In this document: piece after piece, positions 47,251-50,643 of the stretch
How the letters are laid out: each line of letters starts with the position of its first letter
Position numbering within the stretch: position 1 is the stretch's first letter
Assembly: GCA_947501005.1 (NCBI GenBank)
Contig: CANMTU010000001.1
Location: 1,202,501-1,266,500 of the forward strand
Direction of reading: 5' to 3'
Length of the DNA stretch: 64,000 nucleotides
Origin: an uncultured Erythrobacter sp.
GTDB lineage: Bacteria; Pseudomonadota; Alphaproteobacteria; Sphingomonadales; Sphingomonadaceae
The notes under the pieces: model-generated
Seen by the model: only the letters and a program-made list of their open reading frames with translations
The model's database searches: none
What the model was told of the DNA's origin: nothing
Translations under genes and position numbers: made by a program

Positions 47251-48549
47251 TCAGCTGTCGAGCGCGAAGAACCTGCCATAGTCGCGCGGGGTCATGCGGA
47301 CTTCCAGCAGGATTGACGGCTTGCCCGCCCCTGTCTGTTCGTGCCGCTCATCCAGCACTTCGCCATGCGCATGCAGCCAGGCGATCCGCTGCCCGTCGCC
47401 CGCCGACAGGCGGATCTGGTGAATTTCCGCCTCCTGCGTCAGTTCGGCGCCGAGCCGTTCGATCAGGCGATCGACCCCCTCCCCCGTCTGCGCGGAAACG
47501 AGGACGACGTCCTCCGTCGCCAGATTGCGAAGCTCGGTAAGGTCGTCCTCGTCCAAGAGGTCGATCTTGTTCCACACTTCGAGAATGGGGATCTTCTCGC
47601 CCCCTTCGCTTTCGGCGATACCGAGATCGGAAAGGACTTGCAGGACCTCGTTCTTCTGCGGGCCGGCCGCGGGGCTGGCCATGTCGCGCACATGGACGAT
47701 CACGTCGGCCGCCGTGACCTCTTCCAGGGTCGCACGGAATGCCGCGATCAGCTGCGTCGGAAGGTCGGAGATGAAGCCGACCGTGTCGGACAGGATCGCC
47801 TTTTCGACGCCCGGCAGGCGCACCGCACGCATGGTCGGATCGAGCGTGGCGAACAGCAGGTCCTCGGCCATGACGTCTTCACCGGTGATGCGGTTGAACA
47901 GCGTCGACTTGCCCGCATTGGTATAGCCGACCAGCGCGATCACCGGCCAGGGCGCCCTGCCCCGCCGTTCGCGATGCAGCCCGCGCGTCTTGCGAACCTG
48001 TTCGAGTTCGCGGCGCAGGCGGCCCATCCGCTGCCGGATCATCCGCCGGTCGGCCTCGATCTGGGTCTCGCCCGGCCCGCCCAGGAAGCCGAACCCGCCA
48101 CGCTGGCGTTCGAGGTGGGTCCAGCTGCGCACGAGCCGGCTCTGCTGGTAATCGAGATGCGCCAGTTCGACCTGCAGGCGCCCTTCCGCGGTGGCCGCGC
48201 GTTCCCCGAAGATCTCGAGGATCAGGCCGGTGCGGTCGATCACCTTGCGTTGCAATTTGTCTTCGAGATTGCGTTGCTGGATCGGGCTCAGCGAACCATC
48301 GACTACGACCAGTTCGGCGCCCTCCTGTTCGCAGGTGATGCGGATATTATCGACCTGGCCGGGGCCGAACAGCAGGTTGGGACGCACCTGACGCACTGGC
48401 AGGACCGTTCCTGCCGCGATGTCGATGCCGATCGCGAGCGCGAGGCCACGCGCCTCGTCCAACCGGCTTTCGGCGTCGAGTTCGTAGCTCTGTCCGCGAA
48501 TATCGGGACATATCACGACGGCCCGCGCCCCGCGCGTAACCTCGCCCAT
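47251..48549 (-). CDS. hflX: GTPase HflX
   Basis: 432 residues. A ribosome-associated GTPase that splits stalled ribosomes in stress. The N-terminal HflX domain (VRPNLLFGPGQVDNI, GLILEIFGERAATAEGRLQVELA) is followed by a Gly-rich linker (RGGFGFLGGPGETQIE), G1 GYTNAGKSTLFN, G3 DTVGFISDLP and G4 NKID. ATG 48549 has no clear Shine-Dalgarno sequence; the frame is open a few codons upstream to near the hfq stop, so translation may be coupled to hfq. The hfq-hflX order is conserved in many proteobacteria. Confidence 0.95.
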   Translation of the reverse strand: MGEVTRGARAVVICPDIRGQSYELDAESRLDEARGLALAIGIDIAAGTVLPVRQVRPNLLFGPGQVDNIRITCEQEGAELVVVDGSLSPIQQRNLEDKLQRKVIDRTGLILEIFGERAATAEGRLQVELAHLDYQQSRLVRSWTHLERQRGGFGFLGGPGETQIEADRRMIRQRMGRLRRELEQVRKTRGLHRERRGRAPWPVIALVGYTNAGKSTLFNRITGEDVMAEDLLFATLDPTMRAVRLPGVEKAILSDTVGFISDLPTQLIAAFRATLEEVTAADVIVHVRDMASPAAGPQKNEVLQVLSDLGIAESEGGEKIPILEVWNKIDLLDEDDLTELRNLATEDVVLVSAQTGEGVDRLIERLGAELTQEAEIHQIRLSAGDGQRIAWLHAHGEVLDERHEQTGAGKPSILLEVRMTPRDYGRFFALDS

Positions 48550-48566
48550 CAGGTCATCGTCGAAGC

Positions 48567-49121
48567 TCAGCGGTCGTCCTCGTCATCCATGTCTTCGGTA
48601 AGATCCACCGCTTCGGCGGGCTGGATCGTCGAGACTGCGTGCTTGTAGGCCAGTTGCACATAACCATCGCGTTCGAGCAGCATGCAGAACAGGTCGTAAG
48701 CCGCGATCTGACCCTGCAGCATCACGCCGTTGACGAGGAACATCGTTACCTGCGTCTCGCTTTCGCTGACCCGGCTGAGGAACACGTCCTGCAGCAGGCG
48801 CTGTTTCGCGCCCGAACCCTGGCTGCCGAACTGGCCCGCGTCGATCGGTTGGCCCGGCATGATCGTGCTGACGGCATGCTTATAAACGAGTTGCGATTGG
48901 CCGTCGCGCCGCAGCAGGATCGAGAAATTGTCGAACCACGTGACGATGCCCTGCAGCTTGACGCCTTTGACCAAAAACACGGTCACCGGCGTCTTGCTTT
49001 TGCGCAGCAGGTTGAGGAAGGCATCCTGCAGGCCGGGGGGCTTGCCTTTCGACTTCGTCGGCTTCTCGGGAACCGGCGGCGCCGGGCGGGGCCTCGCGGT
49101 CAATGTCTTTTCACCAGGCAT
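48567..49121 (-). CDS. hfq: tandem RNA chaperone Hfq: two Sm domains in one chain
   Basis: 184 residues from ATG 49121 with GGAGA upstream. Standard Hfq is 75-100 residues with one Sm fold; this has two. Domain 1 (about 30-91): [34 protein letters not shown]. Domain 2 (about 109-168): [30 protein letters not shown]. Both keep the Lys-His of the proximal U-binding pore. Domain 2 has Met where E. coli has Lys31 and has lost the basic rim (SESET instead of RRER). A basic, Pro-rich N-terminus and an acidic tail ([12 protein letters not shown]) flank them. Three chains could form a pseudo-hexamer. Confidence 0.93.
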
Positions 49122-49139
49122 GCGCCGTCTCCGTTCTTG

Positions 49140-49155
49140 GCGGCCGTTCGGCCGC
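49140..49155 (-). promoter_or_regulatory. perfect hairpin in the hfq leader
   Basis: GCGGCC-GTTC-GGCCGC forms a 6-bp all-GC stem with a tetraloop, 18 bases before the hfq start on its strand and just upstream of the Shine-Dalgarno sequence. Hfq represses its own mRNA through leader sites in E. coli, so a role in autoregulation is conceivable. Confidence 0.4.
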
Positions 49156-49272
49156 GATCTGGGCGCAACCACCGCGCCCGGGTTTGCAAATTCGTCCCCG
49201 TCTGAACAAACTCGCAAACGTCAATAAGTTTCGCGCCAGGCGCGGGATTCGCAACCGAAATGGCGGCGCGCG

Positions 49273-50643
49273 TTACTTGTCCTTCCGGTCGGCCATGCCC
49301 AGGAGCTTGAGCTTGCGATGGAGCGCGGAGCGTTCCATGCCGATAAAACTGGCGGTTTTCGAAATGTTTCCGGAGAATCGCCGGATCTGGATCGAGAGAT
49401 ATTCACGTTCGAAGCTTTCTCGCGCCTCGCGCAAGGGGGCGCCCATCAGGGCGGTGATGCCGGCCGCTTCGCCCGAACCGCCGGAGATTTCCTGCGGCAG
49501 CATGTCCGCCTCGATCCGCTCCATCCGTTCGCGTGGGGTCAGGATGACCGTGCGTTCGACCACGTTGCGCAGCTGGCGTACATTGCCGGGCCAGTCGTAG
49601 GCCTGCAAAGCGGCCATCGCCTCCTCGCTGATGTCCGGCGCGGTGACGCCCTGTTCCGAGGCATAGCGGGCGAAAAAATGCCGTGCGAGGGCGGGAATAT
49701 CGTCGCGCCGCTCGGTCAGAGAGGGCACTTCCACCGGGACGACGTTCAGGCGGTAGAACAGGTCCTCGCGGAAACGCTTCTCCGCCATCTCGTTGTCGAG
49801 ATCGCGCGCCGTGCTCGACACGACGCGCACGTCGACCGCGATCTGGCGCGACCCGCCGACCCGCACGAAGCTCTGCTCGGTCAGCACCCGCAGGATGCGG
49901 GCCTGGGTGGAGAGCGGCATATCGGCGATCTCGTCGAGGAACAGGGTGCCCCCATCCCCCGTCTCGAGCAATCCGCGGCGCACGAGCTTGCCGTTGTGCT
50001 CCTCCCCGAACAATTCTTCCTCGAACCGTTCCGGCGTGATCCGCGCCGAATTCACGACGACGAAGGGTTTGTCGGCCCGGGGCGACCAGCTGTGCAGCAG
50101 CCGCGCGGCGATTTCCTTGCCCGCCCCCGCCGGCCCGCTGATAAGTACGCGGCTGCCGGTCCCGGCGACGCGTTTCAAGGTGGCCCGCACCGCGTTGATC
50201 GCCGCCGAGTTACCAGTGAATTCGCCCGCCTCGCCGAACCCTTCGCGCAACCGCGTGTTCTCGCGGCGGAGGCGTTCCGTCTCGGTCGCTCGCTCGACGA
50301 GATGCAGCAGCCGTTCGGTCTCGAATGGCTTTTCGATAAAATCTACCGCCCCCCGGCTGACCGCGGAAACGGCGGTGTCGATATTGCCGTGGCCGGAAAA
50401 GATGATCACCGGCAGATCGGGCTCGCGCGCCTTGATCGCATCGAGCACTTCCAGCCCGTCCATCTGGCTGCCATGCAGCCATACGTCGAGCAGGACCAGG
50501 CTGGGCCGCTTTTCATCAACCGCAGCCAGCGCCGAAGTGCTGTCGCCCGCGCTGCGGCAGACATAGCCTTCGTCGCTCAAAACACCTGAAACCAGATCAC
50601 GGATGTCGCGTTCGTCGTCGACTACGAGGATATCGAGAGCCAT
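49273..50643 (-). CDS. ntrX: nitrogen/redox response regulator NtrX
   Basis: 456 residues. Receiver domain with phospho-Asp in VLLDVWL (about residue 53) and Lys in FIEKPFE; AAA+ domain with Walker A SGPAGAGKE and Walker B GGTLFLDEIADMP; C-terminal HTH (NISKTASFIGMERSALHRKLK). The sigma-54 contact loop GAFTGA is absent (FGEEHNGKLVRRGLLE in its place), as in many alphaproteobacterial NtrX proteins, so it may act with sigma-70 rather than sigma-54. It begins 3 bases after its kinase gene ntrY ends. Confidence 0.94.
   Translation of the reverse strand: MALDILVVDDERDIRDLVSGVLSDEGYVCRSAGDSTSALAAVDEKRPSLVLLDVWLHGSQMDGLEVLDAIKAREPDLPVIIFSGHGNIDTAVSAVSRGAVDFIEKPFETERLLHLVERATETERLRRENTRLREGFGEAGEFTGNSAAINAVRATLKRVAGTGSRVLISGPAGAGKEIAARLLHSWSPRADKPFVVVNSARITPERFEEELFGEEHNGKLVRRGLLETGDGGTLFLDEIADMPLSTQARILRVLTEQSFVRVGGSRQIAVDVRVVSSTARDLDNEMAEKRFREDLFYRLNVVPVEVPSLTERRDDIPALARHFFARYASEQGVTAPDISEEAMAALQAYDWPGNVRQLRNVVERTVILTPRERMERIEADMLPQEISGGSGEAAGITALMGAPLREARESFEREYLSIQIRRFSGNISKTASFIGMERSALHRKLKLLGMADRKDK

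What the first reader, a model, noticed from the sequence alone, without database searches (positions are those of the whole stretch)
48567..49121. Hfq made of two fused, unequal Sm domains
The protein holds two complete Hfq folds. Domain 1 keeps the lateral basic rim (LLRKSK) and Lys at the Lys31 position; domain 2 has an acidic/neutral rim (SESET) and Met there, while both keep the YKHAVST pore motif. A trimer of such chains would be a pseudo-hexamer with alternating rim patches, so sRNA annealing would differ from classical Hfq. The acidic tail resembles the E. coli C-terminal tip that sweeps RNA off the ring. I recall tandem Hfq being noted in a few sphingomonads, but the asymmetry is rarely discussed.
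Basis: partly seen in the sequence, partly recalled or inferred. Interest (0 to 1): 0.75.

Follow-up and report, generated by a model that had tools for sequence, protein, structure and literature searches.

The report
Double-headed Hfq with unequal halves
This bacterium's only Hfq, a ring-shaped RNA-matchmaker protein, is made of two fused copies whose RNA-facing surfaces differ; the fusion is a known trait of sphingomonad bacteria, but a fixed division between the two halves seems not to have been described.

Summary
Confirmed: window 48567-49121 (minus) encodes a 184-aa protein with two complete Hfq domains and an acidic tail, the only Hfq found in its genome. It is no artefact: 225 of 236 sampled genomes of its family have two Hfq matches, and a tree places the fused form as one gain without reversion. 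The fusion is already known: NCBIfam has a model, and a 2010 Zymomonas paper asked whether three chains make the ring.

What looks new is the pattern over 216 fused loci. The invariant asymmetry is distal: N28/K31 in 44/44 single-domain Hfqs, K28/K31 in domain 1 and N28/M31 in domain 2 of 207/207 typical fusions, so charge is moved, not lost. Residues that receive the acidic tail in Caulobacter Hfq stay in domain 1 and are largely lost in domain 2, the only domain with a tail.

Best model: three chains form an alternating ring, domain 2 donating tails to domain 1 rims. Stoichiometry and function are inferred.

The parts
48567..49121 (-). hfq, tandem (two-domain) form, 184 aa; the only Hfq match of the genome
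49032..49121 (-). N-terminal extension, residues 1-30 (pLDDT under 50 for residues 1-27, probably disordered)
48843..49031 (-). Hfq/Sm domain 1 (residues 31-93)
48993..49004 (-). domain 1 basic rim R40 K41 S42 K43 (E. coli 16-19)
48957..48968 (-). domain 1 distal turn K52 G53 V54 K55 (E. coli 28-31: K28, K31)
48795..48842 (-). linker between the two Pfam domains, 16 residues (24 residues if counted from T61 to Q8, as in 138 of 216 tandem loci)
48606..48794 (-). Hfq/Sm domain 2 (residues 110-172)
48756..48767 (-). domain 2 neutral/acidic rim S119 E120 S121 E122 (E. coli 16-19)
48720..48731 (-). domain 2 distal turn N131 G132 V133 M134 (E. coli 28-31: N28, M31)
48570..48605 (-). acidic C-terminal tail (residues 173-184, [12 protein letters not shown])
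47251..48549 (-). hflX, immediately downstream (GTPase HflX, TIGR03156)
49273..50643 (-). ntrX, upstream (NtrX response regulator, NF051870)

Best explanation
This is the tandem Hfq of the sphingomonads (sole Hfq, RNA chaperone). Most likely three chains form one Hfq-type ring in which domains 1 and 2 alternate. Six proximal pockets (U-rich RNA 3' ends) and six distal base pockets remain. Charge is redistributed: three domain-1 rims are basic and can anneal RNA, and three domain-1 distal turns carry two lysines each, while the domain-2 turns carry none. The single acidic tail, attached to domain 2, docks on the neighbouring domain 1, whose tail-receiving residues are kept. Domain 2, with no free tail from domain 1 to receive, has largely lost its own receiver. 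Shown: sequences, conservation, single gain on the tree, fold of each domain. Inferred: ring stoichiometry, alternation, tail docking, RNA effects.
For: Both domains are modelled as Hfq folds: 123 of 184 residues have pLDDT of at least 90, pTM 0.74; the 50 Foldseek matches shown (of 1111) are Hfq entries, best C. crescentus 6gwk, target TM up to 0.99. It is the only Hfq match in a genome rated 100% complete in 6 contigs, so it must supply the ring. 207 tandem loci against 44 single-domain loci: residues of singles kept at the distal pocket 1242/1242 in domain 1 and 1241/1242 in domain 2; proximal pore 1242/1242 and 1077/1242; interface 1369/1449 and 1122/1449, so both domains still look like ring members. 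Tail-receiver residues (E. coli 16, 17, 19, 37, 38, 47) kept strictly 1195/1242 in domain 1 (1242/1242 if K17 and R17 count alike) but 177/1242 in domain 2. Five of the six are, by the numbers in PMC6561178 (passages), Caulobacter R18, K19, K21, S39 and R49: the tip lies on R18/K19, K21 bonds to R49, and tail residue E75 meets R49 and S39 of the neighbouring protomer. I added position 38. Distal turn: N28/K31 in 44/44 singles, K28/K31 in 207/207 domain 1, N28/M31 in 207/207 domain 2. In a nested clade of 9 loci the tail is 5-8 residues long and the domain-1 receiver is eroded too (23/54 kept, against pore 42/54 and distal pocket 49/54). One gain, no reversion on the HflX tree.
Against: No coordinates or aligned errors were returned, so the placement of the two domains is not shown; pTM only hints that it is defined. 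No hexamer was modelled. Receiver residues overlap with the RNA-binding rim, so their loss in domain 2 may simply mean that three rims suffice. R16 is still Arg in 118 of 207 domain 2, which is 118 of the 177 kept cells: the receiver is gone mainly at 17, 19, 37, 38 and 47. Twelve of 216 keep a fully basic domain-2 rim. Tail and receiver loss co-occur in one clade, i.e. one event, and that clade diverged everywhere. An extra prediction, that basic domain-2 rims go with acidic linkers, looked good raw (Spearman 0.41, 207 loci) but not on 39 representatives (0.20, p 0.22) and leaned the other way on the tree (same 0.5, opposite 2.9, no difference 3.6 of 7 independent pairs, median p 0.5): not supported. 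Domain 2 evolves faster (mean pairwise identity 0.664 against 0.808), as relaxed constraint would also give.
Confidence: 0.55

Rival explanations
1. Relaxed half: the ring alternates, but domain 2 is only a structural filler whose RNA-binding extras drift away, with no division of labour; three rims and three charged knobs are simply enough.
For: Domain 2 is less conserved overall (mean pairwise identity 0.664 against 0.808; mean site entropy 0.91 against 0.46; 39 representatives), and rim positions 16, 17 and 19 are among its most variable sites. Rim basicity (two or more basic residues) needs at least 12 changes on an HflX tree of 153 tandem loci.
Against: N28, M31 and Q63 in domain 2 have zero entropy in the 39 representatives: M31 is fixed as Met, not merely lost. 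K28 of domain 1 is a fixed new residue, which drift in domain 2 does not explain. Among 30 close relatives the dN/dS-like ratio of domain 2 is not higher than that of domain 1 (0.036 against 0.058), though dS is near saturation.
Confidence: 0.27
2. Separate rings: six chains make a homo-ring of domain 1 joined by linkers to a homo-ring of domain 2 (a double ring), giving two different Hfq rings stacked or tethered.
For: The linker, 19-29 residues from T61 to Q8, is long enough not to forbid it (inference). The domains differ enough to have homotypic preferences (inference).
Against: It would leave the domain-2 ring without any K31 and mostly without a basic rim, and the domain-1 ring without tails of its own. 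pTM 0.74, with 30 of 184 residues under pLDDT 50, suggests a defined contact between the two domains of one chain (inference).
Confidence: 0.12
3. Artefact: frameshift, misassembly or a chance fusion of two neighbouring genes in this genome.
For: None found.
Against: The same two-domain ORF is present in 216 loci from two genome collections, the window's own included, and NCBIfam has a model for it.
Confidence: 0.01
4. Alternation without tail logic: distal and rim asymmetry evolved for a particular RNA or protein partner (for example an asymmetric sRNA path or a degradosome contact), not for tail docking.
For: The strictest asymmetry (28, 31 and 63) is not in the rim/tail-receiver set. PMC6422490 (passages) describes RNA weaving between six positively charged protuberances of the distal face; that K31 is one of them is my inference.
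Against: It does not by itself explain why residues 37, 38 and 47 go together with 17 and 19 in domain 2 and stay in domain 1.
Confidence: 0.25

Closest known systems
NCBIfam NF010691 / PRK14091 'RNA chaperone Hfq' (176 positions)
   Same: A model that spans both domains; P0001 scores 293.4 bits over the 270 cut-off, one stretch, residues 22-183.
   Different: The model's entry as shown says nothing about domain asymmetry.
Zymomonas mobilis Hfq (ZMO0347; PMC2877685, passages read)
   Same: Two Sm-like domains; the authors noted six other species within Sphingomonadales and asked whether three chains form the hexamer ring; the hfq mutant has stress phenotypes.
   Different: The passages read do not compare the RNA-binding residues of the two domains. 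Its sequence was not fetched by name here.
Caulobacter crescentus Hfq (6gwk; PMC6561178, passages read)
   Same: Closest solved relative by sequence and fold; acidic tip docks on the rim.
   Different: Single domain, six identical rims and tails.
E. coli Hfq
   Same: Same fold, pore and distal pockets; acidic C-terminal tip (PMC5606850 passages).
   Different: Single domain with a longer tail; homohexamer.
Eukaryotic Sm/Lsm hetero-rings (recalled)
   Same: Rings built of non-identical Sm folds.
   Different: Separate chains, heptamers; here two Sm folds in one chain.

Membership tests
Hfq (PF17209) | Hfq profile over the curated cut-off | tested here: met
   Both domains: 107 and 82.4 bits against 27; whole protein 185.2
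Hfq (PF17209) | Sm fold (N-terminal helix and five strands) | tested here: met
   AlphaFold2 model, helix plus five strands in each domain; Foldseek to Hfq chains
Hfq (PF17209) | Proximal pore residues Q8, F42, Y55, K56, H57 | tested here: met
   All present in both window domains
Hfq (PF17209) | Basic rim and K31 in each subunit | tested here: not met
   Met in domain 1 only; domain 2 has S16 E17 E19 and M31. Not a strict criterion: PMC6561178 (passage) speaks of Hfq proteins lacking the rim arginines.
Hfq (PF17209) | Six-domain ring, RNA chaperone activity | not testable with these tools
   No oligomer prediction or experiment available
Tandem Hfq (NF010691/PRK14091) | Two-domain profile over the cut-off of 270 bits | tested here: met
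   293.4 bits, profile positions 14-176
Tandem Hfq (NF010691/PRK14091) | Confined to one family of Sphingomonadales, in the samples searched | tested here: met
   5 of 289 class genomes over the cut-off, all in the window's family; of 61 sampled order genomes outside the family 59 have one PF17209 match, one none, one two on different contigs. Nothing outside the class was searched, apart from the 14 control genomes.
Tail-autoinhibited Hfq (C. crescentus type) | Acidic C-terminal tip | tested here: met
   Window tail ends DMDDEDDR; at least 4 acidic of the last 8 residues in 183 of 216 tandem loci
Tail-autoinhibited Hfq (C. crescentus type) | Tip docks on a basic rim and inhibits annealing | not testable with these tools
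   Receiver residues complete in domain 1 only; docking not measured

The most novel reading that the evidence does not exclude
A natural, obligately three-fold Hfq. One duplication early in the sphingomonad family turned a six-fold ring into a ring of three donor-acceptor pairs: domain 1 is the RNA-annealing and tail-accepting half with a doubled distal charge (K28+K31), domain 2 the tail-donating half with none (N28+M31). Total distal charge at these positions (six lysines a ring) is conserved but gathered into three knobs, so that A-rich RNAs would be read with alternating strong and weak steps. Among the loci placed on the tree the fusion was not reversed.
Probability: 0.35. Interest if true: 0.68.

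Novelty: new member of a known kind. Interest (0 to 1): 0.48.

Why it matters
Hfq is normally six identical subunits, so a mutation hits all six sites at once, and how many rims, tails or distal charges a ring needs is hard to ask. Here evolution has separated them in one chain. The conserved K28/K31 against N28/M31 split, and the loss of the tail receiver mainly in the tail-bearing domain, give concrete predictions that can be tested by mutating one domain at a time in a sphingomonad laboratory strain such as Zymomonas mobilis or Novosphingobium aromaticivorans. It also makes the ring-stoichiometry question of PMC2877685 (2010), to which I found no answer in the searches run here, directly testable.

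Tried and rejected
Linker compensation: I expected domain-2 rims that stay basic to be matched by acidic linkers standing in for a tail. Raw Spearman 0.41 (207 loci), 0.20 with p 0.22 on 39 representatives; on a tree of 153 tandem loci the independent pairs leaned the opposite way, not significantly, under each of four cut-offs tried. Dropped. Two tests against tail acidity gave nothing either.

Tandem Hfq outside the family: three non-family genomes with two matches (G001; G493 and G689) were searched again. G001 and G493 have their two matches on different contigs (G001's second is a fragment), and G689 gave one PF17209 match. G299, in the family, has two single-domain matches far apart on one contig. 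None is a fusion.

Orientation of the two domains: not obtainable, because the model's coordinates and aligned errors are not returned; the VIA-align library was not available. The second structure job was not used.

Literature: the 2002 survey that I recall as first noting Novosphingobium's Hfq (Sun, Zhulin and Wartell) is not held. A passage of PMC3474761 lists N. aromaticivorans among species with two hfq-like copies, citing its reference 43, which I did not identify. Searches for prior notes on the fusion or its asymmetry: (listings). Of the 11 papers opened, passages only, PMC2877685 alone discussed the two domains. Most subscription papers are not held, so this is not proof of absence.

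Promoter and terminator scan of 48400-49350: 0 of either kind found.

Full report
WHAT IS THERE. Window 49121..48567 (minus) encodes a 184-residue protein. Pfam Hfq (PF17209) matches twice. In the whole genome (rated 100% complete, 6 contigs) these two are the only Hfq matches, so this protein is very probably the cell's whole Hfq supply. The upstream gene is ntrX, the downstream one hflX (NCBIfam names). Relatives of both genes lie on the same strand in 153 of 156 tandem loci long enough to look (hflX alone in the other 3). Among 44 single-domain loci hflX is there in all and ntrX in 14 (their flanks are only about 1.5 kb, so neighbours can be missed). I infer that the fusion arose inside the ordinary hfq locus.

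IT IS REAL AND KNOWN. In a sample of 297 order genomes, 225 of 236 in the window's family have two PF17209 matches and 11 have one. Outside the family 59 of 61 have one, one has none and one (G001) has two (counted by eye from the table); G001's two are on different contigs. In 289 genomes of the class, 5 exceed the cut-off of the tandem model NF010691, all five in the window's family. NCBIfam already has that model and P0001 exceeds it. PMC2877685 (passages) reports two Sm-like domains in Zymomonas Hfq, excepts six other Sphingomonadales species from the one-domain rule, and asks whether three chains form the ring. On a tree of the neighbouring HflX protein (116 loci chosen from 198, rooted on a single-domain locus from outside the family), the single-domain loci form one side of one branch (SH-aLRT 96), so the tandem state needs a single change and none of 72 tandem loci reverts (the tool warned that two long single-domain rows near the root, L004 and L005, may be misplaced). 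A domain tree of 39 tandem representatives and 25 singles, without the nine diverged loci, puts all domain 1 on one side of a branch (76) and all domain 2 on one side of another (86), with domain 1 nearer the singles; supports are modest, as only 63 columns exist.

THE DATA SET. 263 loci were scanned; 218 have a two-domain ORF, 44 a one-domain ORF and 1 (L203, a trial fetch) none. L001 and L002, copies of the window gene, were dropped; the window gene stays in as L113, leaving 216 tandem loci. Named and unnamed loci may include the same species (L060 and L114 have identical HflX), so I also used 48 representatives at 85% identity over both domains. A nested clade of nine loci (support 100) is so diverged that I treat it apart, leaving 207 loci and 39 representatives.

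THE ASYMMETRY. E. coli numbering throughout; it is recalled, and agrees with the residue names in the papers quoted. Rim (16, 17, 19): all three basic in 44/44 singles and 210/216 domain 1; in domain 2, 0, 1, 2 or 3 basic in 71, 108, 25 and 12 of 216. Those positions rank 55, 54 and 57 of 58 in conservation in domain 2 (39 representatives). The rim loss is thus a strong trend with drift, not a fixed state. Distal turn (28-31): N28 and K31 in 44/44 singles; K28 and K31 in 207/207 domain 1; N28 and M31 in 207/207 domain 2. Of the 60 columns compared only 28, 31 and 63 are fixed differently (at least 95% in each domain). Counted per pair of domains, lysines at 28 and 31 number two in both forms (1+1 in singles, 2+0 in tandems), so charge is redistributed rather than lost. 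In the nine-locus clade domain 1 keeps K28 with R31 in 9/9, but domain 2 has M31 in only 2/9.

WHAT IS KEPT IN BOTH. Share of residues seen in singles, 207 loci: distal base pockets (25, 29, 30, 32, 33, 52) 1242/1242 in domain 1 and 1241/1242 in domain 2; proximal pore (8, 39, 42, 55, 56, 57) 1242/1242 and 1077/1242; interface (11, 12, 24, 26, 54, 59, 62) 1369/1449 and 1122/1449. The interface list and most distal and proximal residues come from passages of PMC11770335 and PMC6422490; F42 is recalled. Both domains therefore look like working ring members.

THE TAIL. 183 of 216 tandem loci have at least four acidic residues in the last eight; singles 36 of 44 (one single, L166, is cut by its contig end). 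In C. crescentus Hfq the tip lies on R18 and K19, K21 bonds to R49, and tail residue E75 contacts R49 and S39 of the neighbouring protomer (PMC6561178 passages). These are E. coli positions 16, 17, 19, 47 and 37 (offset of two, from the alignment). With position 38 (my addition), domain 1 keeps these in 1195/1242 strictly, 1242/1242 if K17 and R17 count alike; domain 2 in 177/1242, of which 118 are R16 alone. Only domain 2 has a free tail. In an alternating ring every neighbour of domain 2 is a domain 1, so tails would meet intact receivers, and the receiver on domain 2 would be idle. In the nine-locus clade the tail is 5-8 residues long and the domain-1 receiver falls to 23/54 (G38 in 9/9), against 42/54 for its pore, 50/63 for its interface and 49/54 for its distal pocket: one concordant event in a clade that diverged everywhere.

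RESULTS AGAINST. The linker-rim compensation that the tail idea suggested failed on the tree. Receiver and RNA rim overlap, so three rims may simply suffice, and R16 persists in more than half of the domain-2 rims. Domain 2 evolves faster overall. Synonymous divergence is near saturation, so the ratios 0.058 (domain 1, 339 of 435 pairs) and 0.036 (domain 2, 250 of 435 pairs) among 30 close relatives are rough; pairs with saturated or very low synonymous divergence were left out. The structure model (mean pLDDT 82.8, pTM 0.74, 54 sequences) confirms two Sm folds but does not reveal their arrangement. None of the 50 PDB matches shown (of 1111) aligns over more than 78 columns, so none covers both domains.

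MECHANISM AND VERDICT. Best reading: trimeric alternating ring, domain 1 as annealing and tail-accepting half, domain 2 as tail donor with a charge-free distal turn. Shown: sequences, fixed differences, single gain, fold of each domain. Inferred: ring, docking, RNA consequences. The object is a member of a known kind; the fixed distal asymmetry and the donor-acceptor pattern were not described in any text I saw (searches; open-access library, listings and passages only).

Noticed in passing
L149, L151, L152, L153, L156, L157, L169, L170, L172 (genus code g12): A clade of nine tandem Hfqs with a 5-8 residue C-terminus, R31 and G38 in domain 1 (Q57 in four), F55 in seven domain 2 and a non-Met residue 31 in seven: possibly an Hfq with changed or reduced function, in genomes of 2.1-2.6 Mb.
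   Followed up: partly
L014, L150, L154, L155, L158 to L168: Fifteen single-domain Hfq loci from the window's own family, all outside the tandem clade on the HflX tree: natural before/after pairs for the duplication.
   Followed up: partly
L272 and L274 (G299): A family member of 86% completeness and 7% contamination with two single-domain Hfq matches of equal score far apart on one contig; could be a duplication or an assembly artefact.
   Followed up: no
window 48621-48623 (residue 167, E. coli position 63 of domain 2): Met63 (43 of 44 single-domain Hfqs, the other a gap; 202 of 207 domain 1) is Gln in 207 of 207 domain 2; no role known to me.
   Followed up: no
window 49122-49272: 151-base gap between ntrX and hfq; no sigma-70-like promoter or terminator found by consensus scan. 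In Zymomonas the hfq 5'UTR is regulatory (PMC5770649 passages).
   Followed up: no
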